From Candidatus Thalassolituus haligoni (lineage in GTDB: Bacteria; Pseudomonadota; Gammaproteobacteria; Pseudomonadales; Oceanobacteraceae), in contig NZ_CP139482.1 of the NCBI RefSeq assembly GCF_041222825.1, positions 3,973,501 through 4,037,500 on the forward strand: 64,000 nt of DNA. The letters run 5' to 3'. Each line of letters begins with the position of its first letter. Within the stretch, counting starts at the first letter, position 1. Below are positions 5,756-31,300 of this stretch, piece after piece. Below the pieces are notes generated by a model. That model was given only the letters and a program-made list of their open reading frames with translations. It searched no databases and was not told the DNA's origin. Both the position numbers and the translations under genes were made by a program.

Positions 5756-5782
5756 CGGTATTTCCCACTCCTCTACGCTTTC

Positions 5783-6712: not shown

Positions 6713-6722
6713 TACCGTACCC

Positions 6723-7798: not shown

Positions 7799-8003
7799 CT
7801 TGTTTATCCCATCTTTAAAAAAACAGCTTTAGGGTACATCTATAAATTATTGCGCTTGAAATGAAGGCGTTTAAAATCGACTAGAAATTCTCATTTATTA
7901 CTCATAAACTGCGCTTTTCGTCGATTTTTTTCCTTGTTCTTTCATCGCTTGCTATATTTTTAGATGCGCCCTTTAGAAAGCATTACGTTAGAAGGCATTA
8001 CGT

Positions 8004-8459
8004 TTATTCTCCGTTTGATCTCAACGGCATAACCAGCACCGGCACCGATGCAGAATCGAGCACCTTTTGTGTTTGTGAGCCAACCAATAATCGCTCCAAT
8101 CCATGATGGCCATGAGAAGCCATCACCACCAGGTCACAAGCGCTGCTGCGGACTTCGTTAATAATTTCCTCAAACGGCGCATCACCTATACGCAGCTGGG
8201 TAACCGCTCTGACACCATGCAAGGCAGCGAGATCCAATGCCGCCTGGAGAGTCTGTTTGGCTTCATGGAGTGCTATGTCTATAAAACGATCAGGAGACAG
8301 AGTTCTTTGCAGAGCCCCTTCAGCAGTGCCTTCAAAGTCCTGACAGACCGTAATAAATGTCATCGTCGCTCCGATCTCACTGGCAAATTTGATCGAATAT
8401 TCCGCCAATCTCATAGCCAGGGGCGACTGATCCAAAGGCACTAGCAGGTGCTGGTACAT
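8004..8459 (-). CDS. Universal stress protein, UspA family
   Basis: The 151-residue single-domain protein starts MYQHLLVPLDQSP and ends with the ATP-binding motif GHHGLERLLVGSQ, then VPVLVMPL. These are hallmarks of the ATP-binding Usp subgroup. Its start lies inside the end of the upstream RND transporter gene (19-base overlap), with GGAG inside that gene, so the two are translated together. The tight link suggests a role tied to the envelope transport module, but the target is unknown. Confidence 0.9.
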   Translation of the reverse strand: MYQHLLVPLDQSPLAMRLAEYSIKFASEIGATMTFITVCQDFEGTAEGALQRTLSPDRFIDIALHEAKQTLQAALDLAALHGVRAVTQLRIGDAPFEEIINEVRSSACDLVVMASHGHHGLERLLVGSQTQKVLDSASVPVLVMPLRSNGE

Positions 8460-10882: not shown

Positions 10883-10897
10883 GACGATACTCCATTT

Positions 10898-11950
10898 TTA
10901 TTTCAGTGACCGGCGCGAAAGATTGTTCGCACCAGAAAAGATTAGCTGTTTGTCTGCCGATTCAATAAATGCCGAAATCGGTCCATTGGCAGGCAAGCCC
11001 ACAGAATTGAAGAATGTTGCATCCTTACTCAAATGCAGCTGACCGGTTTCGTCTGCCAGCACAATCGCTCCATCTGACAAAATATGACCAGCGACTATAG
11101 AGGTTTCTGGCAGATTGAGTGCTTTCCAGGATTCTCCTTGATCCGTGCTCGCGAATGTTTTACCACGCAAGCCATAGGCAATCAGGCTCTTGTTACCTAG
11201 CGGCAGAATTCCGAACAGAGATCCATCCCAGCCCACATTCAGTGAAGAGAATGACTGGCTGTTATCATCGGAACGAAACAGGGCTCCCTGCTCACCGGCG
11301 AGGTATATGAAATTTTCCTGTTGGACAACAGCATACAAATGGCGACCTGCAGGGTCTGCGATACGTCCAATCAAACTTTCCCAATGCATGCCACCATCAC
11401 GGGTTGCAAACGCGATACCATAGGCACCAACGATGATGCCGTGCAACGCATCGGTAAAATGTATTCCAAGAAATGGCTTGTCGGCACCATCCTGCACCAG
11501 ATAGCGGGCTGCCTGCATGCGACTGTCATTAGCACTATCCTTTTCAGCTGCCTTAAGTTCAATCTGCGCAGCCTGAAAACCGTCTAGCTGCTTTTTCCAG
11601 TGCTTACCACCATCCACAGTCTTCAACACCACACCGCTATGACCGATCGCCCAACCGGTGTCAGCATCAACAAAATACAGTTTGGTGAGCGTGACACTCA
11701 CAGGGACAAAGTCGGCCTGATGCCAGCTTTGGCCTGAATCATCAGAAAGCATAACGACACCACGCTCGCCGCACGCCACCAAGCGATCGGCTGCCCGCAC
11801 CACACTGGTGATTAATACATGATGGGCACGTGATGATTTCGTGCTCTCCATATTCAGAGGATCCAAACGAACCATATCTTCTGAAAAAACATTCACTGAG
11901 ATAAAAGCCAAACCAAGAATCAGTGAGATATTCCGTAGATATTTGGTCAT
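10898..11950 (-). CDS. YCF48/BNR-repeat periplasmic protein
   Basis: The 350-residue protein has a signal peptide (about the first 23 residues, ending VNVFSE). It contains repeated beta-propeller blades of the type LSDDSGQSWH, KTVDGGKHWK, ATRDGGMHWE, RSDDNSQSF and STDQGESWK. These match YCF48-like/BNR repeats, known in photosystem II assembly factors and also common beside MMPL transporters in heterotrophs. Here it is 15 bases from the transporter gene and probably acts as its periplasmic partner. The ligand is unknown. Confidence 0.85.
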   Translation of the reverse strand: MTKYLRNISLILGLAFISVNVFSEDMVRLDPLNMESTKSSRAHHVLITSVVRAADRLVACGERGVVMLSDDSGQSWHQADFVPVSVTLTKLYFVDADTGWAIGHSGVVLKTVDGGKHWKKQLDGFQAAQIELKAAEKDSANDSRMQAARYLVQDGADKPFLGIHFTDALHGIIVGAYGIAFATRDGGMHWESLIGRIADPAGRHLYAVVQQENFIYLAGEQGALFRSDDNSQSFSSLNVGWDGSLFGILPLGNKSLIAYGLRGKTFASTDQGESWKALNLPETSIVAGHILSDGAIVLADETGQLHLSKDATFFNSVGLPANGPISAFIESADKQLIFSGANNLSRRSLK

Positions 11951-12028
11951 AAAATTACCTGATTTCCGAAACGTGAATGAGTCAACCCGGCCTTCCGAAC
12001 GAAAACCGGGACTGACCTTTAAGAAGTT

Positions 12029-13378
12029 TTAACGAAGACCACTGGCCCCCATTGAAGCCCCGGTAAAGAAGCTATTTGGCTTATCATCCACAACTCGAAA
12101 ATATTCTTCGTTAAAGCACTGCACACAACTGAAGGTTTTAGCCTGCAGATCATATACAAATGTTGTGTCCGCAATGACGATCGGGTAATCCGGTTCAACT
12201 GTTGGCATAACATAAGAGGAACGCCACAATTTACCTTCGGCGTCATATCCATCAATCATAGATACCGCCCAGGTATCTTCGTCAAAATAGAATGTGCGTT
12301 TCGGCAGAACGTGACGCTTGCCAGCTGCAACCGTTGCTTCTACAACCCAAACCCGGTGCAGCTCCCAGCGCACCTTGTCTGGATTAAAGTGAAAAGGCAC
12401 CATCGCATCATCCATCGGCGTCGCCTGGAAACCGTTAGTGTTGTAAGGGATATACATTTCCTTCTTGCCAAGCAGCTTCCAACTGTAGCGATCTGGTGAT
12501 CCATAGAAGCCAATCACTTCGTCGAAGTAATTCGCTCCAGATGCCACGAAGTCAGGCGTATCATATGCCACCGTTGGGGCACGTCGAACCCGACGTTGAC
12601 CCACCAGGTACTGCCACGCCTGTCGGCTGTTAACCAAACTCACGTTATCCCGAATCACCAGTGCTTCACCAGCCTTGAACGGTGGATCAGTGTTTACGAA
12701 CCGCGCTAGCAGATAATCACCACTCCATTTTTCGGCACTGCCATTACGAGAATAATACGGCGACTGGTTGTTGTTTTCTGCACGGGTAGCGATAGTCCAG
12801 CGGCCATTGGACGATCCAACGACGTTCTTCAAACCGAACTCTGAAGAGCTGATTCGAGGATGCAGAATGTGGTTCCAGATGACTTCTTCACCAGACTTTG
12901 GAATCGGGAACGGCACGCCACCAAAGGCGTTCTTCACTTCACCGTCTTCACCTAAAGAGGCCCTGGTCGCATTAGTGTAAGTGTTTTCGTACACATAGCG
13001 TGGTGCTGCAGCGGTACGATGCGTTGGATAAACATCAACCCGGAAGCTTGGGTATTTTTTCATCAACTCGATCGTGCCCTGGCTGAGTTTGTCGACGTAT
13101 TGGCCAGAATTGTTCGCGTCAATAAAAAACAACGGTTTTTCGGCGGCATACGGATCAGCAGAGTGGCCGGTATTCAGTTTGGCAACCTGAGGAGCACTTT
13201 TGCCATCCCAGGCAGGGATGCTACCATCCGCGTTGCCCGCCTTTTCCGCACCCAGCGGGGTCAAAGAGGTCTTGAGTTTGGCGGCTTCTTCAGCAGACAC
13301 ACCGGCCTGAGATATTGCCGGGATATAACATATCGATGCTACCGCGAATGCCAGCGCAGCCTTATTAAAAAATTTCAT
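12029..13378 (-). CDS. DUF1329 outer-membrane lipid/hydrophobe-handling protein
   Basis: The 449-residue product has a signal peptide (cut after about residue 25, ISQAG). It shows the DUF1329 pattern, including SLTPLGAEKAGNADGSIPAW near the mature N-terminus and ERxYIPYNTNGF-like and DTWAVSMIDGYDAEGKLWR segments later. The family is predicted to have a LolA/LolB-like open barrel, so it may ferry a hydrophobic compound through the periplasm. It follows the DUF1302 gene by 20 bases with AAGGAT before the ATG. DUF1302 and DUF1329 are regular neighbours; to my knowledge no member has a settled biochemical role. Confidence 0.88.
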   Translation of the reverse strand: MKFFNKAALAFAVASICYIPAISQAGVSAEEAAKLKTSLTPLGAEKAGNADGSIPAWDGKSAPQVAKLNTGHSADPYAAEKPLFFIDANNSGQYVDKLSQGTIELMKKYPSFRVDVYPTHRTAAAPRYVYENTYTNATRASLGEDGEVKNAFGGVPFPIPKSGEEVIWNHILHPRISSSEFGLKNVVGSSNGRWTIATRAENNNQSPYYSRNGSAEKWSGDYLLARFVNTDPPFKAGEALVIRDNVSLVNSRQAWQYLVGQRRVRRAPTVAYDTPDFVASGANYFDEVIGFYGSPDRYSWKLLGKKEMYIPYNTNGFQATPMDDAMVPFHFNPDKVRWELHRVWVVEATVAAGKRHVLPKRTFYFDEDTWAVSMIDGYDAEGKLWRSSYVMPTVEPDYPIVIADTTFVYDLQAKTFSCVQCFNEEYFRVVDDKPNSFFTGASMGASGLR

Positions 13379-13398
13379 TTCCAGATCCTTATATTTCG

Positions 13399-15099
13399 TT
13401 AGAACGAACGCTGAACAGTCAATGCAACAAAATCGCGATCGCCGTAGTACTGGTCATAACTGGCATAGCTGGATGCTGCCGCATCTTCCGATGCCAATAC
13501 CGGAGCCGGGCCGTCATCGCCGAAGAAATGTTTGTAGTTGAAGCTGAGTTTCCAAATCCTCTGAATATCGGCGTTAATACCAACGGAAATATCTCCACCA
13601 TGCTCAGGAACCATCTGAAATATTGCTGAACGACCACTAATCCCATAACCCACACCAATTGGAACCTGCATATCAACCCCAGGAAGAACTTGAAAATATT
13701 CGGGTTGAAATACAAATCGAACGGCAGAATGGCCACGTGTACTAGTAGTGTTTTTAGCCGCCAGCCCCGTCGCACTAACCGGGTCATGGGTAACACTCAT
13801 CAACCGATTATAGGCGATTTCACCAACAAAGCTGGCACCATCCCAAAGAGACGACTCTGTAAACACTGAAATGGCAGACCAATTCATATGAAAAGTGTTA
13901 CCGCGTGCATAAGGCGTATTATCTTTATTATCGGCATCGGCCATGGTGCTAATTATCAGATCTCCCAATGGGGCCAGTGGTGTATTGTGTCGTATGGATA
14001 TTTCACCAGCAACATTGCTTTCACCAAACACGGTAGAAATACTGGCACCAAAAGTGTCAATGTCTCGCGCATACATCAAGCGATAAGTTTCAGTAGCCAC
14101 ATCGACTACTGGAATAGGGGCTTTTTCGCTATAACGAGCGGCATATACACCATAATCGGTATCACTGATGCGGATTTTAATACGGGCACCGAAGTTGCCG
14201 CTGTCGTCACCCTCAAGATCGGATACACGAGGTGCTACACCAGATCCAAAAGGAATCAGTAACAGATCACTGCCATCACCGACGAAGTCAGCGGCACCAA
14301 AATAGCTTCCCGCTGCCGGCAATCGTATCGGCTTCCATTCGTACTGATAGTAGGCACCAACAGACACATCAGGGGAAAGCTGGAAGTCGGTAGACACCTG
14401 CCCTACGGGCATGGCAATTTCTTTGAATTGGGCATTTGGCAAAGAATATGCTTTGATCAGATCGACCGGCCCCTGTGCCGCAGCAATACCGTTGGCACCC
14501 AGGAACAGGGTTTCACCGTAGAGCTGGGTATGCTTACCCACACGCACAGTAATACCGGATTCTTCACCCGTCATAAAACGGCCGTACAAAAAAGCATCCA
14601 GAATTTCGACCCGGCGCCCCATGACGTCCTGAACATCAGACGAATTACGATTGTTTTTTTCACCTGCCAGTGTTGCCTGGGTATTTGGAGGATTACCATC
14701 CGGATAGTCATTATATTCATTCATATAATGATCATCGTACCAAGCAGCACCCGATATACGGAATCCGTAGTTTTTATAAAGGAGGTCAAACTCAGAAAGT
14801 AGATCAAGGCGATTATTGATCAGACCTCGGTCATGCGCAAGATCTCCATAATCCGTATTCGGCTGCTCACCGGACTCACCAGAGGCTACATAATTATCAG
14901 GCTTATTAAGACGCCATGCTGCCGTGTATTTAAATGTATTATCCCAACGGACTTTCAAGTCGGGATTGCCCGTATTGATCGATTGAGAAAATGCTTCTGG
15001 AACACCACCTCCTAGCATAGCCACAATGGCAAGTGAGAGAACACACTTTCGCTGCGGAGTACCTTGTACACCATGGGGATCTGGAACAGATTTAGTCAT
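13399..15099 (-). CDS. DUF1302 outer-membrane beta-barrel protein
   Basis: From the ATG at 15099 the product has 566 residues, with a signal peptide ending near GVPEAFSQS. It then has many amphipathic strands and a terminal phenylalanine (FVALTVQRSF), as expected for an outer-membrane barrel. The ATG at 15099 is preferred over an upstream in-frame start at 15204 because GAAGGG lies 7 bases upstream and the extension would spoil the signal peptide. The family is thought to form channels for hydrophobic compounds. It is the first gene of the DUF1302-DUF1329-YCF48-RND-Usp operon and has the palindromic element at 15197-15216 about 100 bases upstream. Confidence 0.88.
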   Translation of the reverse strand: MTKSVPDPHGVQGTPQRKCVLSLAIVAMLGGGVPEAFSQSINTGNPDLKVRWDNTFKYTAAWRLNKPDNYVASGESGEQPNTDYGDLAHDRGLINNRLDLLSEFDLLYKNYGFRISGAAWYDDHYMNEYNDYPDGNPPNTQATLAGEKNNRNSSDVQDVMGRRVEILDAFLYGRFMTGEESGITVRVGKHTQLYGETLFLGANGIAAAQGPVDLIKAYSLPNAQFKEIAMPVGQVSTDFQLSPDVSVGAYYQYEWKPIRLPAAGSYFGAADFVGDGSDLLLIPFGSGVAPRVSDLEGDDSGNFGARIKIRISDTDYGVYAARYSEKAPIPVVDVATETYRLMYARDIDTFGASISTVFGESNVAGEISIRHNTPLAPLGDLIISTMADADNKDNTPYARGNTFHMNWSAISVFTESSLWDGASFVGEIAYNRLMSVTHDPVSATGLAAKNTTSTRGHSAVRFVFQPEYFQVLPGVDMQVPIGVGYGISGRSAIFQMVPEHGGDISVGINADIQRIWKLSFNYKHFFGDDGPAPVLASEDAAASSYASYDQYYGDRDFVALTVQRSF

Positions 15100-15196
15100 A
15101 TTAAACCCTTCAACTCGGATGGCAATCCCTAGAAGCGCCATCTCATTTCTATTTATTATTAGGGAACTTTTATTCTCAGCCAGACACTCCACGTCC

Positions 15197-15216
15197 ACAA
15201 TCACGGAAACCCGTGA
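15197..15216. promoter_or_regulatory. Candidate operator upstream of the DUF1302 operon
   Basis: The plus-strand sequence is ACAATCACGGAAACCCGTGA. It contains an inverted repeat (TCACGG and CCGTGA). It differs at one of 20 positions from the element at 22834-22853 and has the same orientation relative to the gene it precedes. The likely binder is the LuxR/MalT-like regulator at 22985, but this is inference. Confidence 0.55.
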
Positions 15217-15703: not shown

Positions 15704-16480
15704 CTACGCTTGAGTAAATCCGCCATCGACATATAAGGTATGCCCGGTGACATTGTCGGCTCCAGCAATATAGGCTACAGCCTCCCCCAGGTCCTTTGGC
15801 TGCTGTGGACGAGCCAGCGGTATATTAGCCCGTGACAAGGCATCCAGAACAGCTGCCGATTCAACACCCGATACAGCAGCATACGCCGGGCCCAAATGTT
15901 CAGACCACATCAGTGAATCCACAAACCCGGGACAAACCGTATTTACCGTAATATCGTAGGCAGCCAATTCTTGGCACCAAACCCGGGTCAACCCCAATAC
16001 GCCACTTTTTGTAGCAGCATAAGCAGACTGAAAGGGTGCAGGCCGAGCAGCGGCGACGGAAGCCACATTGATAATTCGTCCACGCTTTTGTTCAATCATT
16101 GTGGTTACGACGGCTTGGGCACATAGAAAACTGCCCTTCAAATTAACATCAATCACTCGATCCCAAACGGCTTCCTCCAATTCCTGCAGAGGTGCCAGAC
16201 CGATAATGCCGGCATTATTGACAAGAACATCAATGGCGCCAAGCTGCTCCAGTACCGTAGCCGCCATTTTTACGGTCGCCTTACGGCTAGTCACATCCAC
16301 CGCCACTGCGATGGCTTTGTACCCCCGCCCTACCAATTCATCTGCAAATCGATCGCAGACCTGTTGATCAAGGTCAGCGACCACTACCTGCATACCGCGA
16401 GCAGCGAGTACCAGACACACACCCCGACCTATGCTGCCAGTAGCGCCAGTGACAATGACAACCCTGTTGCGAATATCCAT
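15704..16480 (-). CDS. Short-chain dehydrogenase/reductase (SDR)
   Basis: The 258-residue protein has the classical SDR motifs: cofactor site VTGATGSIGRG near 10-20, NNAG near 88, the catalytic YAATK near 156 and a C-terminal VDGGFTQA. It probably interconverts an alcohol and a ketone on a CoA-linked or free intermediate with NAD(P). AAGGAGT precedes the ATG. It is the last gene of the acyl-CoA operon, just after a second SDR that shares its plan but is clearly distinct in sequence. The substrate is unknown. Confidence 0.9.
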   Translation of the reverse strand: MDIRNRVVIVTGATGSIGRGVCLVLAARGMQVVVADLDQQVCDRFADELVGRGYKAIAVAVDVTSRKATVKMAATVLEQLGAIDVLVNNAGIIGLAPLQELEEAVWDRVIDVNLKGSFLCAQAVVTTMIEQKRGRIINVASVAAARPAPFQSAYAATKSGVLGLTRVWCQELAAYDITVNTVCPGFVDSLMWSEHLGPAYAAVSGVESAAVLDALSRANIPLARPQQPKDLGEAVAYIAGADNVTGHTLYVDGGFTQA

Positions 16481-16503
16481 CGATACACTCCTTGGTTGGT
16501 AAC

Positions 16504-17274
16504 TTACCGACCGGTGGTAAAACCACCATCAACTGTATTGGCTGAACCGGTGACTATGGCCGCTTCGGCACTGCCCAAGAAGGCCACCATGGCGGCGACT
16601 TCTTCAGGGGTGGCGCAACGCCCCATAGGATGCATATCATCCAGCGCTTGCCATTGCTCTTCATCCGTTAATTCAGCCATAGTCAGTGCAGTTCGCACAA
16701 ATGTTGGGCAAACCGCGTTGACTCGCACGCCATACTTTCCATACTCGATAGCGGCGGAACGGGTGAGACCAAGCACACCATGTTTGGCTGCCACGTACGG
16801 GCTGACACCGGCAATACCCATCAGTGCAGTAACCGATGCAATATTAATAATTGCACCTCCACGCTCCTGCATATGCGGCAGTTCGGCTTTCATGCTATTG
16901 AAGACGCCAGTCAGGTTGACATCAATCACTCGTGCCCAAGTCTCATCCTCCTGATCTGCCAGAGGGGCAAACGGAATGCCTATTCCGGCGTTATTCACCG
17001 CCATATCCAACTGGCCAAACTCTTCAAGCAAGGTGGCAATCGCCTGCTTCAGCTGTTCAGGTCTGGTCACGTCTGCGCACAGAGCCAGTGCTTTGGCACC
17101 TTGCTCCCGCAGTTTGCTAGCAACTCGTTGCGCCGCTTCAATGGAATAATCCAGCACGGCGACAGCAGCACCTTCGGCAGCGAGACGCTCACAAATGGCT
17201 TCACCCAAACCGGCACCACCGCCGGTCACCAGGACGGTCAGCCCTTCGTACCTTGAGTTACAGAGATTTTTCAT
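16504..17274 (-). CDS. Short-chain dehydrogenase/reductase (SDR), second copy
   Basis: From the ATG at 17274 (AGGAGA 6 bases upstream) the protein has 256 residues. It carries VTGGGAGLGEAI near the N-terminus, NNAGIGIPF, the active-site YVAAK and the C-terminal VDGGFTTGR. An upstream in-frame start at 17322 lacks a ribosome site. It is probably an NAD(P)-dependent beta-hydroxyacyl-CoA or cyclic-alcohol dehydrogenase of the same pathway, lying 23 bases before the other SDR gene. Two SDRs in a row suggest two oxidation steps or two stereoisomers. Confidence 0.9.
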   Translation of the reverse strand: MKNLCNSRYEGLTVLVTGGGAGLGEAICERLAAEGAAVAVLDYSIEAAQRVASKLREQGAKALALCADVTRPEQLKQAIATLLEEFGQLDMAVNNAGIGIPFAPLADQEDETWARVIDVNLTGVFNSMKAELPHMQERGGAIINIASVTALMGIAGVSPYVAAKHGVLGLTRSAAIEYGKYGVRVNAVCPTFVRTALTMAELTDEEQWQALDDMHPMGRCATPEEVAAMVAFLGSAEAAIVTGSANTVDGGFTTGR

Positions 17275-17342
17275 ACTGTCTCCTGAATTTGTTCTGAAGG
17301 GGCGATCCGGCCCGATAGCCACGCCCCGCCGAATCGCATGGA

Positions 17343-18461
17343 TCAGCGAATAATGTCGACCATATCGCCAGCAACCTTTTGACTCACAAGCTCGGCATGA
17401 AGCTCACGGACACCCACCACGTAGGCGGCGGGCACCATCCCTACCGCGCGCTGCTGTCCCCGCAGCAGGGTGTCAATCACCTGAGCTCCCATAGAGGCAG
17501 TACCCACATATCCGAATGCAACTCCCGGTAGAGACACCGAACGCATGGTGGTACGGCCACGGCCATGACAGGTAATCAAACCCCGATGAATATCAAAATC
17601 CTCCCGTGGAGGCTCACCTTGCGGCGCTATTTCCATCGCCCAGCGATTGGTAGCTTCTTCCTGCTCTTGCGCTGAGCGGTGCTGATAGTCACTGGTAAAC
17701 TCTTTCATGCGCGAGATAACCAGATTCATCAGAGCCTGATTGCGGAAGGTCACCAGAGTTGAGCAGTTGATGACACGTTTGTCGTCCTCAAGCCAGACAG
17801 ACTCACCACCACCGCTCCATGGCAAGGCCATCAGCACTTCATGAATTCCCGGCACCACCATATTGACACCTTCGATCGGCCAGGCTTCCCGCTGGTTGTT
17901 CTGCAGCCGATATTGCGGCTGACAGCACATCCGCATGAATGACAGGGTTGAGGACACAGAAGGCACACCAGAGAGTGTGTAGGTAATATCCAGAGAATCG
18001 ATGCCATCAGTTTCCAGTACCTTTTCGGCCACCATCAGTCCCAGGTTCCACATCGCAGAGGTAGCAGGCAATAACGCCAGCCCTTTATCCGCAAAGCGCT
18101 GAGAATATTCAGCCTTCAGCAAGAACATCCAGTCTTGCTCACCGGTACAGTCCAGATAGTGGCAACCGGCTGCCAGTGCCGCTTCCACAACCGGCTTGCC
18201 CAATTGCATATAAGGGCCAACGAGGTTATGAACGACTTTTTTCCCGGTAAAGAGTTTGGTCAGTGCTTCTTTGGTGTGTTCAACCGCGACCACCTCATAT
18301 TCAGCACCTTGCAGTTCTTCCATAGCACCGAGTTGCTTTTCCAATCGCTCTTTATTGCGTCCGGCAGCAATAAACGGGATTTTGCGCTCGGCCAGTTTCC
18401 AGGCAAGATGCTTGCCGGTGTATCCACTGGCACCATAAACAACGACTTTCGGAGAGTTCAT
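17343..18461 (-). CDS. Saccharopine-dehydrogenase-like reductase
   Basis: The 372-residue protein starts MNSPKVVVYGASGYTGKHLA, an N-terminal NAD(P) Rossmann fold of the saccharopine dehydrogenase/trans-acting enoyl reductase group. Later segments include HNLVGPYMQLG and HYLDCTGEQDW. The ATG at 18461 follows AGGAAA; the upstream in-frame start at 18506 is less likely. Related proteins act on lipids or polyketides, not on saccharopine. In this operon it may reduce a double bond or a keto group of the acyl chain. Exact function is unknown. Confidence 0.8.
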   Translation of the reverse strand: MNSPKVVVYGASGYTGKHLAWKLAERKIPFIAAGRNKERLEKQLGAMEELQGAEYEVVAVEHTKEALTKLFTGKKVVHNLVGPYMQLGKPVVEAALAAGCHYLDCTGEQDWMFLLKAEYSQRFADKGLALLPATSAMWNLGLMVAEKVLETDGIDSLDITYTLSGVPSVSSTLSFMRMCCQPQYRLQNNQREAWPIEGVNMVVPGIHEVLMALPWSGGGESVWLEDDKRVINCSTLVTFRNQALMNLVISRMKEFTSDYQHRSAQEQEEATNRWAMEIAPQGEPPREDFDIHRGLITCHGRGRTTMRSVSLPGVAFGYVGTASMGAQVIDTLLRGQQRAVGMVPAAYVVGVRELHAELVSQKVAGDMVDIIR

Positions 18462-18515
18462 AGTTTTTCCTTTTTTATTTTTTGAGGGATTTAACGCACA
18501 AGGCACTCAACAGGA

Positions 18516-20114
18516 TCAGCCAATACGATCCCGATATATCGGGTCCAGACCTGCCTTGAATTTCTCGACCAGAAACCGTGGCTGCACTTTTTCTGTGGCA
18601 GTTTTCGGGAGTTCTTCCATTACATGAATAAATTCGGGAATCATGTTGTTTTCGAGGCGGCCCCGACACCAGGCGAATACCGACTGCGGGTCAAAACCAT
18701 CCGCTTTTCCCGGAACCACAGCGATGACGATATCGCTTTCACCCGGCGCGCCTGATGCAGCTGGAATACCGTAAGCCGCCACATCACTGACATCTGGATG
18801 CTCAGCCACCACCTTTTCCACAAAACCGGGGTTGATAAAGTCTCCGTTATGACGAATACCACCACCCTTGCGATGCTGGTAGAACACCCAGCCATCAGCA
18901 TCCATCGTCACCACGTCGCCGGTGCGCAACCAGCCGCCTTCAACTTTGGCAGCCGAAGCTTGCGCATTATTGAAGTAATCCACGACAGCAGGCGAACCAT
19001 CGGCAGGCCGGAACCAGATTTCACCGGGTACTCCAGGAGGTACTTCATTGCCCTGTTCATCCACCACAATCGCTTTCAGCACCGACGGTGCGCGTCCACA
19101 ACTGCCAATCGGGCCGACACCTGGCGGATTAATGGTCATGCCACCTTCCATGGCGCCATAGAATTCAAAAATATCAACACCAAAGCGCCGGGCAAAATCG
19201 CTCCACAGAACAGCAGGCATACCAGCACTGATAACCAGACGTACCGGGTTATCAGCATCGTTAGCTCGCTGCGGTTCGCTGTAGATGGCAGTCACCATGC
19301 CACCAAGCAGTGAAAACGTGGTGCATCCATAGTGCCGGACAATGTCCCACAGGCGGGACTTGGTGAAACGACGGCTGATCACCGCTCGCAATCCCATTTT
19401 CAATGACGGAGCAAGGGTCAGAAACTGGGCATTGCCATGCGTCAGGGACAAACCGGTATAAGGGCGATCCTGTTGGGTATACCCAAAAACCGCTTGACCC
19501 TGATTTGCCACAAAGCCAAAACGGCCGTGCCGAACAATCACACCTTTAGGGTCTCCCGTCGTTCCAGAGGTGTACATGATCTGCATCGGCGCAGCGTCAT
19601 CCTTGGCCATCACCTCAAGCTCTATTTCAGGAAGTGCAGTTGCCAGGGCATCTGCCATGGATACGGGGGTGATTGACGAGCTATTCCCAGCCAGCCAGTT
19701 CTCACCAACCACATAGGCGAACACCAGACTGGGGACTGCATCCACACACTCAAGCAAAGCCTGCAAGGTGTAATCGGCGCAGATCACCCCCAGACAACTG
19801 GCGTCATTCAGCATGAATGTCAGTTTTTCACCACGGGTACGCGGGTCAATCGGCACCAGTACCGCCCCCAGAATGGCGGCAGCAATCATGGTTTCTACAA
19901 ACTCGGGATGATTTTGCATCAGCAGGCCGATACGATCTCCGGTATGAATACCGCTCTCTTTCAAAGAAAGGGCTATACGCTGGCTGTTATCCCAAAGCTG
20001 CTGGTAGGTACGAACCTCTTCGCGTTCACCATCCACAAAGGTCAGAACATCCAGATCCGGCTCTCGCGCCACACCTTCAGCGACGATATTCGCGATAATG
20101 CTCATATTCTTCAT
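18516..20114 (-). CDS. Acyl-CoA ligase (AMP-forming)
   Basis: The 532-residue protein has the adenylate-forming motifs IMYTSGTTGDPKGVIV (P-loop), EFYGAMEGG, and GGWLRTGDVVTMDADGW, and near the end KTATEKVQPRF with the lysine expected for adenylation. It should activate a carboxylic acid to its CoA thioester with ATP, the entry step for beta-oxidation. AGGG lies 9 bases before the ATG at 20114. It is placed between the thiolase-like and reductase genes with 11-bp spacings. The sequence does not reveal whether the substrate is a fatty, cyclic or aromatic acid. Confidence 0.9.
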   Translation of the reverse strand: MKNMSIIANIVAEGVAREPDLDVLTFVDGEREEVRTYQQLWDNSQRIALSLKESGIHTGDRIGLLMQNHPEFVETMIAAAILGAVLVPIDPRTRGEKLTFMLNDASCLGVICADYTLQALLECVDAVPSLVFAYVVGENWLAGNSSSITPVSMADALATALPEIELEVMAKDDAAPMQIMYTSGTTGDPKGVIVRHGRFGFVANQGQAVFGYTQQDRPYTGLSLTHGNAQFLTLAPSLKMGLRAVISRRFTKSRLWDIVRHYGCTTFSLLGGMVTAIYSEPQRANDADNPVRLVISAGMPAVLWSDFARRFGVDIFEFYGAMEGGMTINPPGVGPIGSCGRAPSVLKAIVVDEQGNEVPPGVPGEIWFRPADGSPAVVDYFNNAQASAAKVEGGWLRTGDVVTMDADGWVFYQHRKGGGIRHNGDFINPGFVEKVVAEHPDVSDVAAYGIPAASGAPGESDIVIAVVPGKADGFDPQSVFAWCRGRLENNMIPEFIHVMEELPKTATEKVQPRFLVEKFKAGLDPIYRDRIG

Positions 20115-20125
20115 AAGTAATATCC

Positions 20126-21355
20126 CTATACCGCCAGAATCGTCACGATCAGTGCCGCAACACTGTCTTTTACGAATCCACCACCGTTTTCAGCCAAACC
20201 GATGCGAGCACTTTCGACCTGTCGGGCACCAGAGCGGCCCTGTAGCTGCTCGGTCAGTTCTACAATCTGGGCAATACCGGTAGCACCAATCGGGTGGCCT
20301 TTACGCAGCAAACCACCAGAAGTACTCACTGGAATACGTCCCCCCAGACGGGTAGCACCAGACTCAACCAGCAGCCCACCCTCACCTTTAGGGCACAAAC
20401 CCAAATATTCGGTATGAATGATTTCAGAAGGTGCAGAGGCGTCGTGAAGTTCCACCACGCTCAGATCAGACGGACCAACTCCAGCTTCTTCGTAAGCCTG
20501 GGCAATTGTGGCTTCAAACACACTTGCTTCACTCTCACCCTCAGCGAAGTCCCAGCCGGTTTTAAATGCGGACGACAGCACACGCACCGGTTTGCTCAAA
20601 CCCAGCTCACGGGCTTTTCGCTCACTGACAACCACAACTGCGGCAGCACCATCACCAATGGGTGAGCACATAGGCAAGGTCAGTGGATAAGCAATTTCTC
20701 GAGCCGCAAGCACTTGTTCAACCGTGACGACATCACGGAATTGGGCGCGCGGGTTCATGCTGCCGTGAAATGAGTTTTTCGCCGATACCGCTGCAATCTG
20801 CTCACGTGTTGTACCGTATTTCTGCATATGATCAGCGGTCATCATGGCGTAAATATCCATAAATACAGAGCGCTGACCTCCTTCCGTCACGGTCATACCA
20901 GCGGCTTTCATACGAGCATTGACGGTCGCTTCAAGTTCGGCTTGCAGCTCTACATCCGCCGCACCGGCAAAAACCGAAAAGCTTTTCGCCTTGTCTTCGT
21001 GAACCAGCTTTTCATAACCACATGCCAGTACCACGTCGTAGGCTCCTGCCGTCACCATGGCAACAGCCTGGTTAAATGCAGTAGATCCAGTGGCACAGGC
21101 ATTTTCGACATTGACAACCGGAATGCCTCCAATGCCAACTTCGCGTAAAACGATTTCCCCCGGCACACACATTTGGCCAGTAATCACTGCCGCTGCCGCA
21201 TTACCCATGTACGCTGCTTCCAGCTCTCCCGGCGAAATCCCGGCATCTTTAAGAGCCTGAAGAATCGCCTCTCCTGCCAGCGATTTCAGGTTACGTCCCA
21301 TATGACGACCAAACGTCGTCATACCTACGCCTGCAACCAATGCATTCGTTTTCAT
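20126..21355 (-). CDS. Thiolase-family protein (SCP2-type)
   Basis: The 409-residue protein has the thiolase nucleophile in NACATGSTAFNQAV (near C87) and GHPIGATGIAQIVEL near the C-terminus. The last catalytic cysteine motif of ordinary thiolases (CxGGG) is replaced by ENGGG, as in SCP2/SCPx-type members. Such enzymes cleave branched or steroid-like 3-keto acyl-CoAs, or act as part of aldolase complexes. GGAG precedes the ATG. It lies directly between the acyl-CoA dehydrogenase and ligase genes. The loss of the second cysteine is worth noting when predicting its chemistry. Confidence 0.88.
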   Translation of the reverse strand: MKTNALVAGVGMTTFGRHMGRNLKSLAGEAILQALKDAGISPGELEAAYMGNAAAAVITGQMCVPGEIVLREVGIGGIPVVNVENACATGSTAFNQAVAMVTAGAYDVVLACGYEKLVHEDKAKSFSVFAGAADVELQAELEATVNARMKAAGMTVTEGGQRSVFMDIYAMMTADHMQKYGTTREQIAAVSAKNSFHGSMNPRAQFRDVVTVEQVLAAREIAYPLTLPMCSPIGDGAAAVVVVSERKARELGLSKPVRVLSSAFKTGWDFAEGESEASVFEATIAQAYEEAGVGPSDLSVVELHDASAPSEIIHTEYLGLCPKGEGGLLVESGATRLGGRIPVSTSGGLLRKGHPIGATGIAQIVELTEQLQGRSGARQVESARIGLAENGGGFVKDSVAALIVTILAV

Positions 21356-21388: not shown

Positions 21389-22699
21389 TTAGAACAAATC
21401 AGGATCGATCATGTTAAAACCTGCTTTCAGAGCAAGAATGTCGTTACAACCATCTTCAATCATGGAGGCGCGAGCATCACGGAGGATCTTTTCGATCTGG
21501 TACTCTTTGGTAAGACCATTGCCTCCGAACACCTGCAAAGCCTCGCTGGCCACTTCGAAAGCGGTCTGAGTGGCCGTAACCTTGGCCGCCATGGCAGACT
21601 GGAGGGAGGGAATTTCTGATGTGTGATTATGCAAAGCGACACGCTGTGCCAACGCCCGCGAGGCCTCAACCTTGCGATACATATGGAACAGCCGGGCAGC
21701 AACAGCCTGATGACGAATAATCGGAACGCCACCCTGCTTGCGTTGATGCGCATACTCAAAAGCCAATTCGTAAGCAGCACGGGCAGCACCCGTCCAGACA
21801 CACGCCATTTGACTGTTTGCTTCGGCGTGAATGAGATACACCGCCCGCTGATAATCTTCAGGACCAGCGACGAGATAATCGGTAGTCAATTCAACGTTAT
21901 CGAAATAAACCTCACCCTGAGGCAGTGCACGCTGCCCAATCTTGTCCAGCGGCTTGCCGCGGGTAACACCAGGCGCATCCATCGGCACCAGAATACAGAC
22001 ACCATGCTGGGTATCAGCACCATCGCCAGTATCGGCAGAACAGAACAAAACACACACTTCGGCCGTTGGTGCGTTGGATACCCAAGCCGCTTTCTGACCA
22101 TTAAGAACAACCTTGTCACCGCGAATGGTCGCCACACAGTTGGGGCGTCCATAATTTCCCTGGGCATGAAATGCCTGGCGACTGATATCCAGAGAATCAC
22201 TACCGTGATCCGGTTCGGTAATAGCCCAACAACCACGTAAAGTGTCGGGAAAACGTTCAATAAGGAAAGTCCGGTTAAATACCAATGCCATCAAGGGTGG
22301 CAACGAACAGGCACCATAGATAATAGAAAGGCCGCCATCTCCCCACCCCATTTCTTCCATAACAATCGGGAACAGACGGCCACGTTCTTCCGGCGACAAA
22401 TCCATGAAAGTTTTTGGGGTTATTTCCAGTTTCTTGAGCTCTTCCAGATAGGTCCAGTACGGAGAGCCAGGAGCAATCACCTCATCTGGCGTCATTTTAT
22501 CGAGGGCGATACCAATAGGACGCATCACTTTTTCAGCGAATGAGTGAACCATGTCCTGCATTGTGCTTTCTAGTTCACTCAACTGCCGGTCTGCACCCGT
22601 TGGAGCGAGCTTAACATGTGGTTTTTCAGGCCAATTGAATGGCGGATGATCTGGGCGACCGCTATCAACAGAGTCAGTAGATGCTGATTTCATAATCAT
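21389..22699 (-). CDS. Acyl-CoA dehydrogenase
   Basis: From the ATG at 22699 the protein has 436 residues. It shows the acyl-CoA dehydrogenase plan: AITEPDHGSD in the middle domain, YAHQRKQGGVPIIRHQAV and QVFGGNGLTKEYQIEKILRD in the C-terminal helical domain, and a probable catalytic glutamate in MIEDGCND. It introduces a double bond into an acyl-CoA and passes electrons to ETF, whose genes lie 14 kb away in the same block. The frame stays open back to a TTG at 22837, but GGA close to 22699 supports the shorter form. It is the first gene of the operon, divergent from the LuxR regulator. Confidence 0.9.
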   Translation of the reverse strand: MIMKSASTDSVDSGRPDHPPFNWPEKPHVKLAPTGADRQLSELESTMQDMVHSFAEKVMRPIGIALDKMTPDEVIAPGSPYWTYLEELKKLEITPKTFMDLSPEERGRLFPIVMEEMGWGDGGLSIIYGACSLPPLMALVFNRTFLIERFPDTLRGCWAITEPDHGSDSLDISRQAFHAQGNYGRPNCVATIRGDKVVLNGQKAAWVSNAPTAEVCVLFCSADTGDGADTQHGVCILVPMDAPGVTRGKPLDKIGQRALPQGEVYFDNVELTTDYLVAGPEDYQRAVYLIHAEANSQMACVWTGAARAAYELAFEYAHQRKQGGVPIIRHQAVAARLFHMYRKVEASRALAQRVALHNHTSEIPSLQSAMAAKVTATQTAFEVASEALQVFGGNGLTKEYQIEKILRDARASMIEDGCNDILALKAGFNMIDPDLF

Positions 22700-22833
22700 A
22701 GAATTCCAAAAGGCTTTTATTTTATTTTCATCAATAGCCACGGGATCAGATCGTCGAACCCGGCACAGGGCCGAACCGCAATCGATGCAATGACCAGCGT
22801 TGTAATCATTTTTAAACGCCTGATCATCATTGA

Positions 22834-22853
22834 ACAATCACGGAAAACCGTGA
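22834..22853. promoter_or_regulatory. Candidate operator between acyl-CoA operon and LuxR gene
   Basis: The plus-strand sequence is ACAATCACGGAAAACCGTGA. ATCACGG and CCGTGAT (22837-22854) form a perfect inverted repeat with a 4-base spacer. It matches the element at 15197-15216 at 19 of 20 positions. It sits about 135 bases before the dehydrogenase ATG and about 130 bases before the regulator ATG, so it could control both directions. Confidence 0.6.
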
Positions 22854-22984: not shown

Positions 22985-25723
22985 ATGAAAATTTCCGACA
23001 AGCAGCCAGTATCCTTTCCAGGTTTATTCAAGTTTGGAGCAGTTCCACGTCTCATCATGGGAAAGCTCGGAGCACCATCGCAAACCCCGGATGCCATCGT
23101 CAGATCGCGATTGATCAATCGGATCAAACAATCAGATAGACGCATCACCATCGTTACTGCACCGGCAGGCTTTGGAAAATCCATTCTGCTTGCACAGCTG
23201 CATCAATCCGTCGAAAAGGAAGGTATTCCCACTGGCTGGCTCACCCTTGACGAACGAGATAATGATCTCGGACGTTTTTTAGTTTATTTAAACCAAGTGG
23301 CCTCAAGGCTTCTTCCTTTTGATATTTTACCATCACCAGACATCGGAAACTCCAGCCCTACACAGTATTTCAGCATCAAAAACCATATATCCTTATTGGT
23401 TAATAAACTGACAACCACAAAAAACCCTTTTTATATCTTTATTGATGAGTTTGAACATATCAAGAACCCGGAAGTTATTGAAATAATCCAGGAGCTGATT
23501 AATTACCTTCCTATTGATAAAAAAATAATAATAGGTAGCCGAAATACCAAAAGCCTACACTTGTCATCATTGGAAATAAGCGGTCAATTACTCAGTCTGG
23601 ATGAATCAGACCTGCGCTTTGATCAGCCAGAGGCATTGGCACTATTCAACAGACAGCAAAAGCCTCAACTCACAGAATCCGATATAGAAATCGTGATAGC
23701 CAGAACACAGGGCTGGGCCGCAGGTATCAGACTGGTACTGCTTTCCATGAAAGACCAAGATAAACCAACTAACTGGCTGGAGAACCTCTCTGGCAGCAGC
23801 GATCACATTGCAAGGTATCTGGCTGAAAATGTTCTGTCCCAACTCTCTGATAACGCTAGAAACTTCCTGATTTCCACCAGCATCCTCGAACAGTTGAACA
23901 GTAATCTTTGTAACTTCTTGCTGGATCAGACAGACAGCCAGGAGCTTTTAACCTATTTTGAACAGAACAACCTTTTTATTTCCAGAATCAGCCAACCACT
24001 AGAACCAGGAGTTATCTCCTATAAATACCATGCCTTGTTCCGGGACTTCCTGTTCAATGAACTAAAAGCCCGACAACCAGAGAACATTCCCACATTGAAC
24101 CACAAGGTCGCCAACTGGTATTTCAGCCGCAATCGCTTACGACCCGCAGTTGAGCATGCTCTGCAATCCGATGACATGACACTGGCCGCGACCATGATGA
24201 ACAAGTGCATTATGGGTCTGATTGGCGTAGCACAAATGGATACCGCAGCCACTTGGGTGAACAGAATCCCGACCGAGCTGGCAGAAAACCAGATCAACAT
24301 CCAACGCGCCAAAGCCTACGCCATGATCTCATTGCATAAATACCATGAGGCGGAAGCGGCCCTAGCAAGATACCAGATACTAGAGGAAGCAGAAGGGGGG
24401 GACGTTTCTCAGGAAGTGTGTGTACAGCTGGCCCTGCTACATGAGTTCAGCGACCGTCATGATCGCACTGCGGAAGACATCAAAAATTTCAAGAAAACAC
24501 CAGGAGATGACCCTCTGCTCAGCAGCATTGCCTGCAACATCTCCGCTTACCACCATATATCAAACAGCGAGTTTGAGAGTGCAATTATTTCGCTGGAAAC
24601 AGCGAAACAGATTTACGAAACCTCAGGCCCGGATCTACAAGCCTGGCCCAAGGTGTATTCCTATTGTTTCGAAGGTTTAATCGAATTTCTGCACGGTAAT
24701 CTGGAGTCTGCCACAGCGATTTTTGAATTCGGTAGTAAAGAAGCCCAGGGTGCTGCCAAAAGTATCGCGGCCAGTTTTATATCCCGCTCTCAGTATGAGG
24801 GCGACAATCTGACCCAGTCCTGTGAACTGATCCAGAAACACATTCCCACCCTGAAAGATACAGGCGACCTCGATACGATTATCATGTCCTATCGGACAGC
24901 TGCCCGTTGTGCCCATCTACTCGGAGAACATCAACAAGTCGATGCTCTGCTGTCTGAGCTAGGCAATATCGGAGATCGACGGGGTGTCAACCGAGCCAAA
25001 GCGTCAGCCTGGCTAGAGAAGTGTCGGTTCAGCTTACTCAAGGGTGATACAGAATCCGCCAAACGTTACCTGGAGCTTGGCTGTAATAAAAGTATTTGGT
25101 CGGTACACAACGGATTTCACTTGTTCGCCAATGAAATTGAAGAGTGCGAACTGGCCGAGCTGCGCATGGAAATTATTACCGGCAACCCGGCAGTGGCTAT
25201 CGACAGATTGCCTGAGCTGATCGAATTGGCATCCCAAAACAACCGGCTATACCGACGCGCACATTTGCAAAATCTTCTGGCTCAGGCTTTCTATCGTTAT
25301 GGCGACCACGCTCATGCACTACATCATTTCAAAATTACAATCAAATTCTGCGAGCAACATGGTCTGCTACGATTGCTGGCTGATGAACCCTGGTATATCA
25401 ACAATATGCTGAATGCTTTTGAAACCAGTCTCTGCACGGCTTGGAAGCCTTATATCGACAAGCTTTCCACAGCCATCAGTAAAAATGCCTTGGATGACTC
25501 TTACCAAGCAACTCCGTTGATTCTCCCGAATCCTCTAACACCGAGAGAAACCGACTTGATAAAACTCGTCAGTGAAGGCTGCGCCAACAAGGAAATTGCC
25601 AGATTGATGACTATCTCGGAAAACACGGTAGAAACCCATCTCAAACGGATTAACCAGAAGCTTGAAACAAGCAATCGAACCCAGGCAGCCACCAAAGCAC
25701 GCGAACTCGGAGCCATTCAGTAA
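22985..25723 (+). CDS. Large ATP-binding LuxR regulator (MalT/LAL family)
   Basis: The 912-residue protein has an N-terminal STAND-type ATPase with Walker A APAGFGKS (59-66) and Walker B FYIFIDEFEHI. A long helical-repeat (TPR-like) sensor region follows, and then a C-terminal LuxR helix-turn-helix (LTPRETDLIKLVSEGCANKE to ENTVETHLKRINQKL). This is the plan of MalT and AlkS, activators that bind ATP and an inducer. The ATG at 22985 is preferred over a TTG at 22943; the nearest purine-rich box is AAAGG. It is divergent from the acyl-CoA operon and probably activates it; the inducer is unknown. Confidence 0.9.
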   Translation: MKISDKQPVSFPGLFKFGAVPRLIMGKLGAPSQTPDAIVRSRLINRIKQSDRRITIVTAPAGFGKSILLAQLHQSVEKEGIPTGWLTLDERDNDLGRFLVYLNQVASRLLPFDILPSPDIGNSSPTQYFSIKNHISLLVNKLTTTKNPFYIFIDEFEHIKNPEVIEIIQELINYLPIDKKIIIGSRNTKSLHLSSLEISGQLLSLDESDLRFDQPEALALFNRQQKPQLTESDIEIVIARTQGWAAGIRLVLLSMKDQDKPTNWLENLSGSSDHIARYLAENVLSQLSDNARNFLISTSILEQLNSNLCNFLLDQTDSQELLTYFEQNNLFISRISQPLEPGVISYKYHALFRDFLFNELKARQPENIPTLNHKVANWYFSRNRLRPAVEHALQSDDMTLAATMMNKCIMGLIGVAQMDTAATWVNRIPTELAENQINIQRAKAYAMISLHKYHEAEAALARYQILEEAEGGDVSQEVCVQLALLHEFSDRHDRTAEDIKNFKKTPGDDPLLSSIACNISAYHHISNSEFESAIISLETAKQIYETSGPDLQAWPKVYSYCFEGLIEFLHGNLESATAIFEFGSKEAQGAAKSIAASFISRSQYEGDNLTQSCELIQKHIPTLKDTGDLDTIIMSYRTAARCAHLLGEHQQVDALLSELGNIGDRRGVNRAKASAWLEKCRFSLLKGDTESAKRYLELGCNKSIWSVHNGFHLFANEIEECELAELRMEIITGNPAVAIDRLPELIELASQNNRLYRRAHLQNLLAQAFYRYGDHAHALHHFKITIKFCEQHGLLRLLADEPWYINNMLNAFETSLCTAWKPYIDKLSTAISKNALDDSYQATPLILPNPLTPRETDLIKLVSEGCANKEIARLMTISENTVETHLKRINQKLETSNRTQAATKARELGAIQ

Positions 25724-31182: not shown

Positions 31183-31300
31183 TACATATCCCTCTTGGTT
31201 AGCATTTACCCTACTGGACAAACGCGCCTGTTCTGGTTTGCCAGGGTGCGCCATACGCACCCTGTGGCTCTATCACAGCCCTCGTACTTGGCTGATACAC

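What the first reader, a model, noticed from the sequence alone, without database searches (positions are those of the whole stretch)
22834..22853. Near-identical palindromic element upstream of both catabolic operons
ACAATCACGGAAAACCGTGA here and ACAATCACGGAAACCCGTGA at 15197-15216 match at 19 of 20 positions and hold the same inverted repeat (TCACGG, CCGTGA). Each lies 98-135 bases before the first gene of a long operon (acyl-CoA dehydrogenase; DUF1302), in the same orientation. I saw no further good copy in other gaps. The MalT-like regulator next door is the obvious candidate binder, which would join uptake and degradation genes in one regulon.
Basis: partly seen in the sequence, partly recalled or inferred. 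Interest (0 to 1): 0.72.

Follow-up and report, generated by a model that had tools for sequence, protein, structure and literature searches.

The report
Activator site shared by two operons
The repeated palindrome looks like the docking site through which one neighbouring activator protein switches on two operons together, a fatty-acid-style breakdown pathway and its membrane transport cassette; this is an ordinary kind of control, but the site and the protein appear to have changed together in one relative.

Summary
The two 20-mers match at 19 of 20 positions; the 16-bp palindrome TCACGG-N4-CCGTGA occurs exactly twice in the 4.38-Mb genome, both here. It is best read as an operator. Of 21 distinct genomes with a regulator of the same MalT-like (LAL) clade and held upstream DNA, 20 carry it (0-2 mismatches) at the regulator gene. 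It abuts a -35-like TTG with a -10-like hexamer 17 bp on, pointing at the catabolic genes: class II activator geometry. A composite pattern found two further targets in relatives: an SDR operon in Zoogloea, an MMPL/DUF1302/DUF1329 operon in Dechloromonas. The regulator is the likely binder: site without nearby operon in Bradyrhizobium, operon without regulator or site in G729, and in G821 a symmetric operator change together with Glu-to-Gln in the recognition helix. "Uptake" is doubtful: the similar AmeABCD cassette is described as efflux (PMC6394551). Binding, activation and inducer are untested. The kind is known (AlkS-like); this operator was not found in the held papers.

The parts
22838..22853 (-). 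Operator 2, TCACGGAAAACCGTGA (6-4-6 palindrome), between the acyl-CoA dehydrogenase operon and the divergent regulator gene
   Evidence: site present in 20 of 21 testable genomes with a clade regulator
22832..22837 (-). -35-like TTGTTC abutting operator 2
   Evidence: in 13 aligned promoters: T in 13, T in 11, G in 10 at the first three positions
22809..22814 (-). -10-like TAAAAA, 17 bp from the -35 (weaker than in most relatives: last T missing)
15201..15216 (-). Operator 1, TCACGGAAACCCGTGA, upstream of the DUF1302 operon
   Evidence: counterpart upstream of DUF1302 in Zoogloea L071
15195..15200 (-). -35-like TTGTGG abutting operator 1
15172..15177 (-). -10-like GAGAAT, 17 bp from the -35
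   Evidence: composite pattern matched with 0 mismatches
22985..25723 (+). LAL/MalT-like regulator, 912 aa: AAA-type ATPase region, MalT-like TPR region, C-terminal LuxR/GerE HTH (residues 850-904); recognition helix SENTVETHL with Glu883; proposed binder and activator
21389..22699 (-). acyl-CoA dehydrogenase, first gene of the catabolic operon (ATG at 22699)
15704..21355 (-). rest of the catabolic operon: SCP2-type thiolase 20126-21355, acyl-CoA ligase 18516-20114, saccharopine-dehydrogenase-like/DUF5938 17343-18506, SDR 16504-17322, SDR 15704-16480
   Evidence: co-transcription inferred from strand and spacing
8441..15099 (-). AmeABCD-like cassette: DUF1302 13399-15099, DUF1329 12029-13378, BNR/YCF48-like 10898-11950, MMPL (nearest TIGRFAM HAE3, below cut-off) 8441-10882
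   Evidence: PMC6394551 passages
4109..8459 (-). probable continuation of the same operon: Usp 8004-8459, EthD 7469-7798, ETF beta 6723-7472, ETF alpha 5783-6712, ETF:quinone oxidoreductase 4109-5755
   Evidence: co-transcription inferred from strand and spacing

Best explanation
TCACGG-N4-CCGTGA is the operator of the LAL (MalT-like, LuxR-HTH) regulator encoded at 22985-25723. In the presence of an inducer from the pathway (identity unknown) and ATP, the regulator binds the palindrome as a symmetric pair of C-terminal HTH domains. The operator occupies about -51 to -36, its outer edge touching the -35 element of a poor sigma-70-type promoter, so bound regulator recruits RNA polymerase by contact at -35 (class II activation). 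One such promoter drives acyl-CoA dehydrogenase to SDR, the other DUF1302 to RND and probably on to ETF/ETF-QO, so degradation, membrane transport and electron transfer are induced together. Shown here: sequence, rarity, conservation, promoter geometry, co-distribution with the regulator clade, and one matched operator/recognition-helix change. Inferred: binding, activation, ATP and inducer dependence, start sites.
For: Rarity: 2 exact places in 4.38 Mb, both here; composite operator+TTG+N21+AGAAT, up to 3 mismatches, finds only these two in the own genome, control 0 (the pattern was drawn up from these and related promoters). Conservation: of 21 distinct testable genomes with a clade regulator, 20 have the site upstream of the regulator gene; in 18 tested stretches (15 regulator gaps, 3 other promoters) 0-5 of 400 dinucleotide shuffles do as well. 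Unbiased ranking of 6-mer half-sites puts TCACGG-N4 first in clade loci: 10 of 20 loci; best other 4 loci at this spacer and 5 at spacers 3 or 5. Geometry: TATAAT similarity peaks 23 bp after the operator (3.62 of 6, next best 2.23, in 13 promoters; 3.64 against a mean of 1.38, sd 0.34, in 14 sites; in four sites not used it is 3.75, next best 3.0). Two new targets from the composite pattern: an SDR2-SDR1 operon on another contig in Zoogloea, and an operon of MMPL, DUF1329, BNR-like, DUF1302 and DUF1329 genes in Dechloromonas with two operator copies 35 bp apart. Binder: three Bradyrhizobium loci have the regulator and a perfect site but no homologue of the operon's proteins in the 16-23 kb held; G729 has the dehydrogenase and ligase genes but no regulator match at E<=1e-30 and no site within 500 bp (best 4 mismatches). 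In G821 the distal operator reads TCACTG-N4-CAGTGA and its regulator, alone among the 18 site-bearing tips that can be read, has Gln for Glu883 in the recognition helix.
Against: No binding or expression data. G732 (L152) lies inside the clade but has no site at 2 mismatches or fewer, and no operon gene in the 1.5 kb held on each side; its helix differs (ESTIETYLHR). Of 17 exact 16-mers in 15 relatives' genomes (about 94 Mb; about 5.6 expected by chance, reversed control 3) 9 lie outside the regulator/DUF1302 gaps; 8 of these 9 overlap stop-free frames of 136 codons or more, one was not fetched. The composite pattern at 2 mismatches recovers only 9 of the 13 promoters it was built from. The window's own dehydrogenase promoter has a poor -10 (TAAAAA), G247 has no good -35/-10 at the usual offset, and the generic sigma-70 scan finds no promoter at either site. 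The Glu-to-Gln match is one event, and the promoter-proximal site of G821 does not show the change. G729 (2.9 Mb) may be incomplete. Many loci are close kin, so 20 of 21 is not 20 independent events. One retrieval pattern was ENTVE[TS]HL, so helix conservation among those loci is partly by selection.
Confidence: 0.85

Rival explanations
1. Another, unlinked transcription factor binds the palindrome and controls the operons and the regulator gene alike; the LAL regulator is only a co-regulated target.
For: No binding test; the site lies between divergent genes, so any factor could use it. Some of these genomes hold several LAL regulators (7 matches in G919).
Against: The site follows the regulator clade even where the operon is not seen nearby (Bradyrhizobium) and is missing where the operon stands without it (G729). 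Upstream of non-clade LAL or HTH matches it is absent: 0 of 44 loci with at most 1 mismatch, 2 of 44 with 2 (6 of the 44 matches do not begin near the gene start and one has only 40 bp upstream); in a further group 0 of 24 with at most 1, 1 of 24 with 2. The operator change in G821 goes with a change in the recognition helix of this very protein.
Confidence: 0.08
2. The LAL regulator (or a partner) binds here to repress: the site overlaps the -35 region and blocks polymerase until the inducer arrives.
For: Site touches -35; a LAL protein reported to act negatively exists (SCO6993, PMC9628970, title and start of abstract seen in the listing).
Against: Poor -35 and -10 hexamers with fixed operator-to-promoter phasing, and pairs exactly 35 bp apart in 15 promoters, fit activation; AlkS, a characterised LuxR/MalT regulator of hydrocarbon genes, is an activator at an inverted repeat (PMC8784404 passages).
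Confidence: 0.06
3. Chance palindrome, repeat element or RNA hairpin with no regulatory role.
For: Six-bp stem with a 4-base loop could fold as RNA; a 12-base match is expected 0.26 times in this genome; 9 of 17 exact copies in relatives lie elsewhere, as chance would give.
Against: Conserved in place and phase at the regulator gene in records named as Oceanobacter, Zoogloea, Rhodocyclaceae, Cupriavidus, Pandoraea and Bradyrhizobium; not a dispersed repeat (0-3 exact copies in each of 15 genomes); lies upstream of the inferred -10, hence not transcribed from that promoter.
Confidence: 0.01

Closest known systems
AlkS / PalkB and PalkS2 (Pseudomonas putida GPo1, Alcanivorax): LuxR/MalT activator of alkane degradation
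   Same: LuxR/MalT-family regulator; inverted-repeat operator upstream of a catabolic promoter; activator; pathway for hydrophobic substrates (PMC8784404 and PMC3664771 passages)
   Different: AlkS operator is described as a 20-bp inverted repeat; orthology and sequence match of sites were not tested here; target genes are alkane hydroxylases, not acyl-CoA ligase/dehydrogenase plus an AmeABCD-like cassette
MalT and the maltose regulon (Escherichia coli)
   Same: Domain order and ATPase/TPR/HTH make-up (NCBIfam MalT model 284.5 bits; solved MalT 8bob matches residues 23-406)
   Different: Scores below the curated MalT cut-off of 537; MalT uses two decanucleotides in direct repeat (PMC6099782 passage), here one 16-bp palindrome, or two palindromes 35 bp apart in relatives
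PAS-LuxR regulators (PimM): CTVGGGAWWTCCCBAG
   Same: 16-bp palindrome of the same length placed in the -35 region of target promoters, bound by a LuxR-family regulator (PMC9774167 passages)
   Different: Different sequence, sensor domain, organisms and target genes
TpdR (Rhodococcus jostii, LAL activator of tetramethylpyrazine genes)
   Same: LAL activator of catabolic genes; 15-nt boxes at -79 to -65 and -51 to -37, near the two-site layout of beta relatives (PMC6099782 passages)
   Different: Proposed site is a direct repeat, not a palindrome
AmeABCD (Castellaniella defragrans)
   Same: DUF1302, DUF1329, COG4447 protein and HAE3 RND in one cassette within a degradation island (PMC6394551 passages); the island also holds a LuxR-family gene next to an acyl-CoA dehydrogenase (PMC4109377 table passage)
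   Different: No operator described in the passages read; whether its LuxR gene belongs to this clade was not tested; described as efflux, not uptake

Membership tests
LAL (MalT-like) subfamily of LuxR regulators | Large protein of about 900 aa with N-terminal ATP-binding domain and C-terminal LuxR HTH | tested here: met
   912 aa; AAA_16 at 43-161 (4.9e-06, below Pfam cut-off), TPR_MalT 521-813 (8.6e-10, below cut-off), GerE 850-904 (2.4e-16, above cut-off); MalT structure 8bob matches 23-406 at 9.4e-37
LAL (MalT-like) subfamily of LuxR regulators | ATP and inducer dependence of DNA binding | not testable with these tools
   needs biochemistry
MalT proper | Passes the curated MalT equivalog cut-off | tested here: not met
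   284.5 bits against 537
MalT proper | Decanucleotide sites in direct repeat | tested here: not met
   site is a 6-4-6 inverted repeat
AlkS | Inverted-repeat operator upstream of catabolic promoter, activator position | tested here: met
   geometry; works like AlkS
AlkS | Orthology of regulator and identity of operator sequence | not tested
   no AlkS sequence was compared
Class II activator-dependent sigma-70 promoter | Site overlapping or abutting -35 at fixed phase to -10 | tested here: met
   offset-23 peak; start sites not mapped; generic promoter scan finds none at the sites
AmeABCD cassette | DUF1302 + DUF1329 + COG4447/YCF48-like + HAE3 RND, contiguous | tested here: met
   (HAE3 model TIGR00921 is the best RND match, 143.4 bits, below its cut-off of 351.9); sequence identity to Ame proteins not compared

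The most novel reading that the evidence does not exclude
Across this part of the LAL family, one recognition-helix residue (Glu883 in the window's protein) reads base pair 5 of a 6-4-6 palindrome. Glu goes with TCACGG (C on the read strand), Gln with TCACTG (A, in G821), and Arg in a sister group with TCGTCG (G). The last came up without a preset site: it is the top-ranked palindrome in 8 sister loci, 8 perfect copies in 4 of 8 loci, next best 3 copies in 2 loci, and by eye 4 of the 11 copies printed (0-1 mismatch) have a TAGACT- or TAAGAT-type hexamer 22-23 bp downstream. Operators of uncharacterised LAL regulators of catabolic genes could then be predicted from sequence. Against it: two of the 8 sister loci (L125, L127), L155 and all 24 loci of a further Arg group (L162-L185) show no TCGTCG site at 1 mismatch or fewer; positions 3 and 4 differ too; TCGTCG ties for second in clade loci (4 of 20); the Glu-to-Gln case is one event and the proximal site of G821 does not follow it.
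Probability: 0.35. Interest if true: 0.65.

Novelty: new member of a known kind. Interest (0 to 1): 0.5.

Why it matters
LAL regulators are numerous and largely without known sites or inducers (general knowledge). Here operator, promoter layout and regulon can be read from sequence, and the assignment pointed to targets in other genomes. It links an acyl-CoA pathway of unknown substrate to an AmeABCD-like cassette and to ETF, which suggests hydrophobic acids or terpenoid-like compounds as substrate (inference) and gives a ready reporter promoter for finding the inducer. The Glu/Gln/Arg pattern, if it holds, would make LAL operators predictable.

Tried and rejected
Chance or dispersed repeat: rejected. 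Terminator or RNA element: rejected, the site is upstream of the inferred -10 with no T-run; terminator-like hairpins lie elsewhere, at 15382-15483 on the minus strand, and one weak match at 22783-22802 on the plus strand. Genome hits with up to 2 mismatches (194 against control 178) carry no signal. Exact copies outside the cluster in G406 (2) and G403 (1) have no cluster genes in the 11-14 kb fetched around them. Two composite hits, in G413 and G415, lie in long stop-free frames and are taken as chance. A promoter signature pointing from the site towards the regulator gene: no peak at the usual offset in 10 loci. A second site 35 bp away in the window: none at 3 mismatches or fewer. Arg-type operator TCACCG predicted by simple substitution: not found as a shared site. 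Viral contigs: one HTH-only match, dropped. Plasmids: matches at 30% or less, one used as sister locus L085. Substrate from solved structures: ligase none at 1e-60, saccharopine-like none at 1e-3, thiolase nearest to SCP2 and benzoylsuccinyl-CoA thiolases; left open. Papers: no hit for five spellings of the 16-mer, none with DUF1302+DUF1329+LuxR; a search for at least four of Azoarcus, LuxR, MalT, acyl-CoA dehydrogenase, regulon gave nothing on point by title and start of abstract. NarL contact residues: no paper found.

Rows left out of counts: L062/G403 (same species as the window) is not counted among the 21. L153 (G808) was not testable because its match begins at residue 526. G1166 (L160) was scored by a whole-locus scan because its match begins at residue 223, and is placed in the clade by 71-72% identity to L072, not by the tree. 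L074, L075 and L078-L083 (partial, contig-edge or HTH-only matches) were not scored. In one search four duplicate loci were taken out before the tree (52 sequences left); eighteen distant ones and one duplicate. L135 and L140 are the same genome (G919), so its 20 loci are 19 genomes. G898 (L139; dehydrogenase 49%, thiolase 36%, no site, no clade regulator) is a more distant operon and was not counted as a test.

Full report
Observation. The palindrome proper is 16 bp, TCACGG-N4-CCGTGA. It has exactly two places in the 4,376,545-bp genome, both here, none for the reversed control. Eleven one-mismatch places all overlap stop-free frames of 196 codons or more, one of them only at the frame's edge. 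With up to two mismatches the count equals background (194 against 178).

Surroundings. Site 2 lies between an acyl-CoA dehydrogenase operon on the minus strand (dehydrogenase, SCP2-type thiolase, acyl-CoA ligase, saccharopine-dehydrogenase-like protein, two SDRs) and a divergent 912-aa regulator with MalT-like ATPase and TPR regions and a LuxR HTH. Site 1 lies before DUF1302, DUF1329, a BNR/YCF48-like protein and an MMPL transporter, followed on the same strand by Usp, EthD, ETF beta and alpha and ETF-QO.

Relatives. The regulator has no close orthologue in the 5 congeners and 16 other genomes of its family that were searched (best about 31-32% over part of the protein). Relatives of 34-66% exist elsewhere. 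In 11 loci other than the same-species L062 (L056, L063-L068, L070-L073) the dehydrogenase gene stands divergent from the regulator, usually with ligase, saccharopine-like and thiolase genes; L065 and G247 (checked over 19.9 kb) show the dehydrogenase only. The palindrome is in the gap in all 11, with 0-2 mismatches. Three Bradyrhizobium loci have the regulator, no homologue of the operon's proteins in the 16-23 kb held, and a perfect site 158-185 bp before the first aligned residue of the regulator; the rest of those genomes was not searched for the operon. Later searches added G919, G821, G1310, G1320 and G1166, all with the site (G821 with a two-base symmetric change), and G732 without it. 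In sum 20 of 21 distinct genomes with a clade regulator and held upstream DNA carry the site; these include groups of close kin.

Elsewhere in those genomes. In 15 relatives' genomes (about 94 Mb) there are 17 exact 16-mers, 0-3 per genome; 8 are in the regulator or DUF1302 gaps and 9 elsewhere, where chance would give about 5.6 and the reversed control gives 3. Of the 9, 8 overlap stop-free frames of 136 codons or more and one was not fetched. So the bare 16-mer is not by itself proof of a target in larger genomes.

Two-site form. In 14 regulator gaps of relatives (G404-G409, G411, G413, G414, G919, G821, G1310, G1320, G1166), and in one further promoter (Dechloromonas MMPL), a second, mostly weaker copy lies exactly 35 bp nearer the catabolic gene (the near copy in G821 was placed by its spacing). 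In the window, Zoogloea, G247 and Bradyrhizobium I found single sites.

Promoter. Aligned on the operator nearest the gene, 13 promoters (with some close kin) show TTG directly after the palindrome and a NAGAAT-type hexamer 17 bp further. TATAAT similarity is 3.62 of 6 at that offset, the next best 2.23. Over 14 sites it is 3.64 against a mean of 1.38 (sd 0.34) at other offsets; four sites not used (two ETF promoters, G821, G247) also peak there at 3.75, next best 3.0, although G247 itself fits poorly. With the usual numbering the operator spans about -51 to -36, centre -43.5. No such signature points towards the regulator gene in 10 loci. The generic promoter scan finds nothing at the sites; hexamers this poor are compatible with dependence on an activator but prove nothing.

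Regulon in relatives. The composite pattern gave 15 places in 16 genomes and none for the control. Eleven are promoters it was built from or their same-species copies (9 of the 13 built-in promoters are recovered at this cut-off); two lie in long stop-free frames. The other two are new. In Zoogloea, where the SDR genes sit on another contig, it found a site just before SDR2-SDR1 (66 and 63% identical to the window's). In Dechloromonas it found a site, with a second 35 bp away, before an operon of MMPL, DUF1329, BNR-like, DUF1302 and DUF1329 genes whose MMPL protein is only 20% identical to the window's. Zoogloea also has a copy before DUF1302, and its three sites share the same one-base departure, TCCCGG. 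ETF operons in two relatives carry a weaker copy with TATACT or TATATT at the usual offset. So the same functions are tied together in different gene orders.

Binder. Regulators with the site form one clade: support 1.000 for 15 site-bearing sequences among 52, and 1.0 for 20 tips of which 19 bear the site. Outside it the site is absent upstream: 0 of 44 loci at one mismatch or less, 2 of 44 at two (6 of the 44 matches do not begin near the gene start and one has only 40 bp upstream); 0 of 24 and 1 of 24 in a further group. The dehydrogenase and ligase genes of G729 stand without a regulator match at 1e-30 and without the site. Seventeen of the 18 site-bearing tips that can be read have Glu at position 883 in the recognition helix (the gene of L070 is broken there). 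The exception, G821, has Gln, and its distal operator alone has the symmetric change TCACTG-N4-CAGTGA. Glu883 aligns with the Lys of STVKVH in NarL chain 1je8; that this Lys contacts bases in a DNA complex, and that Glu favours C and Gln favours A, is recalled, not from a call. In G821's weaker proximal site the change is not seen.

A sister group with Arg at this position was searched without a preset site. TCGTCG-N4-CGACGA is its top palindrome: 8 perfect copies in 4 of 8 loci, others at most 3 copies in 2 loci. It was first noticed in 400-bp upstream regions of two lineages, so only the copies elsewhere are independent. Position 5 is C:G there, as an Arg-G contact would need. Two of the eight loci, L155, and a further Arg group of 24 do not show it, and it ties for second in the Glu-type loci (4 of 20). 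I treat this as a lead.

Known systems. It works like AlkS: LuxR/MalT family, inverted repeat, activation of genes for hydrophobic substrates (PMC8784404 and PMC3664771, passages read). It is not MalT proper: below that model's cut-off, and a palindrome instead of direct repeats (PMC6099782, passages read). The 16-bp palindrome in the -35 region has a parallel in PAS-LuxR proteins (PMC9774167, passages read). DUF1302/DUF1329/COG4447/HAE3 RND is the AmeABCD make-up, read there as monoterpene efflux and tolerance (PMC6394551, passages read), so 'uptake' should be left open. The motif was not found in the held papers under five spellings.

Verdict. A real, conserved operator with a well-supported owner and an activator layout; a new regulon of a known kind. 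The inducer and substrate are unknown, and no step of binding or activation has been measured.

Noticed in passing
window 30163-35671 (-): HODM alpha-like haem N-demethylase (30163-31260), DmmA-like reductase (31301-32272) and a GCV_T + DUF1989 protein (33314-35671): an apparent oxidative N-demethylation cluster near the regulon.
   Followed up: no
window 15382-15483 (-): Four terminator-like hairpin matches (some overlapping) against 0.6 expected, between the last SDR gene and the DUF1302 promoter, fitting the end of the catabolic operon.
   Followed up: no
L116 15143 and L066 746: Weaker operator copies before ETF operons with TATACT/TATATT at the usual offset, suggesting ETF belongs to the regulon where it is split off.
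   Followed up: partly
L085 7126, 10624, 14728; L129 1340, 4353; L130 4293, 5266; L027 2649: Perfect TCGTCG-N4-CGACGA palindromes near Arg-type sister regulators; possibly the operator of another LAL clade.
   Followed up: partly
L070 (G411), regulator at about 12340-12370: Regulator homology breaks into two frames in one Cupriavidus genome: frameshift or sequencing error. Left as is.
   Followed up: no
Castellaniella defragrans monoterpene island (PMC4109377 table passage): A LuxR-family gene (CDM25283) next to an acyl-CoA dehydrogenase in the island that holds AmeABCD; might be the same clade and hint at terpenoid substrates.
   Followed up: no
Zoogloea oleivorans BucT (PMC7012976 figure legend): Another DUF1302/DUF1329 pair sits in a phenol-hydroxylase cluster, so such pairs go with several pathways.
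   Followed up: no
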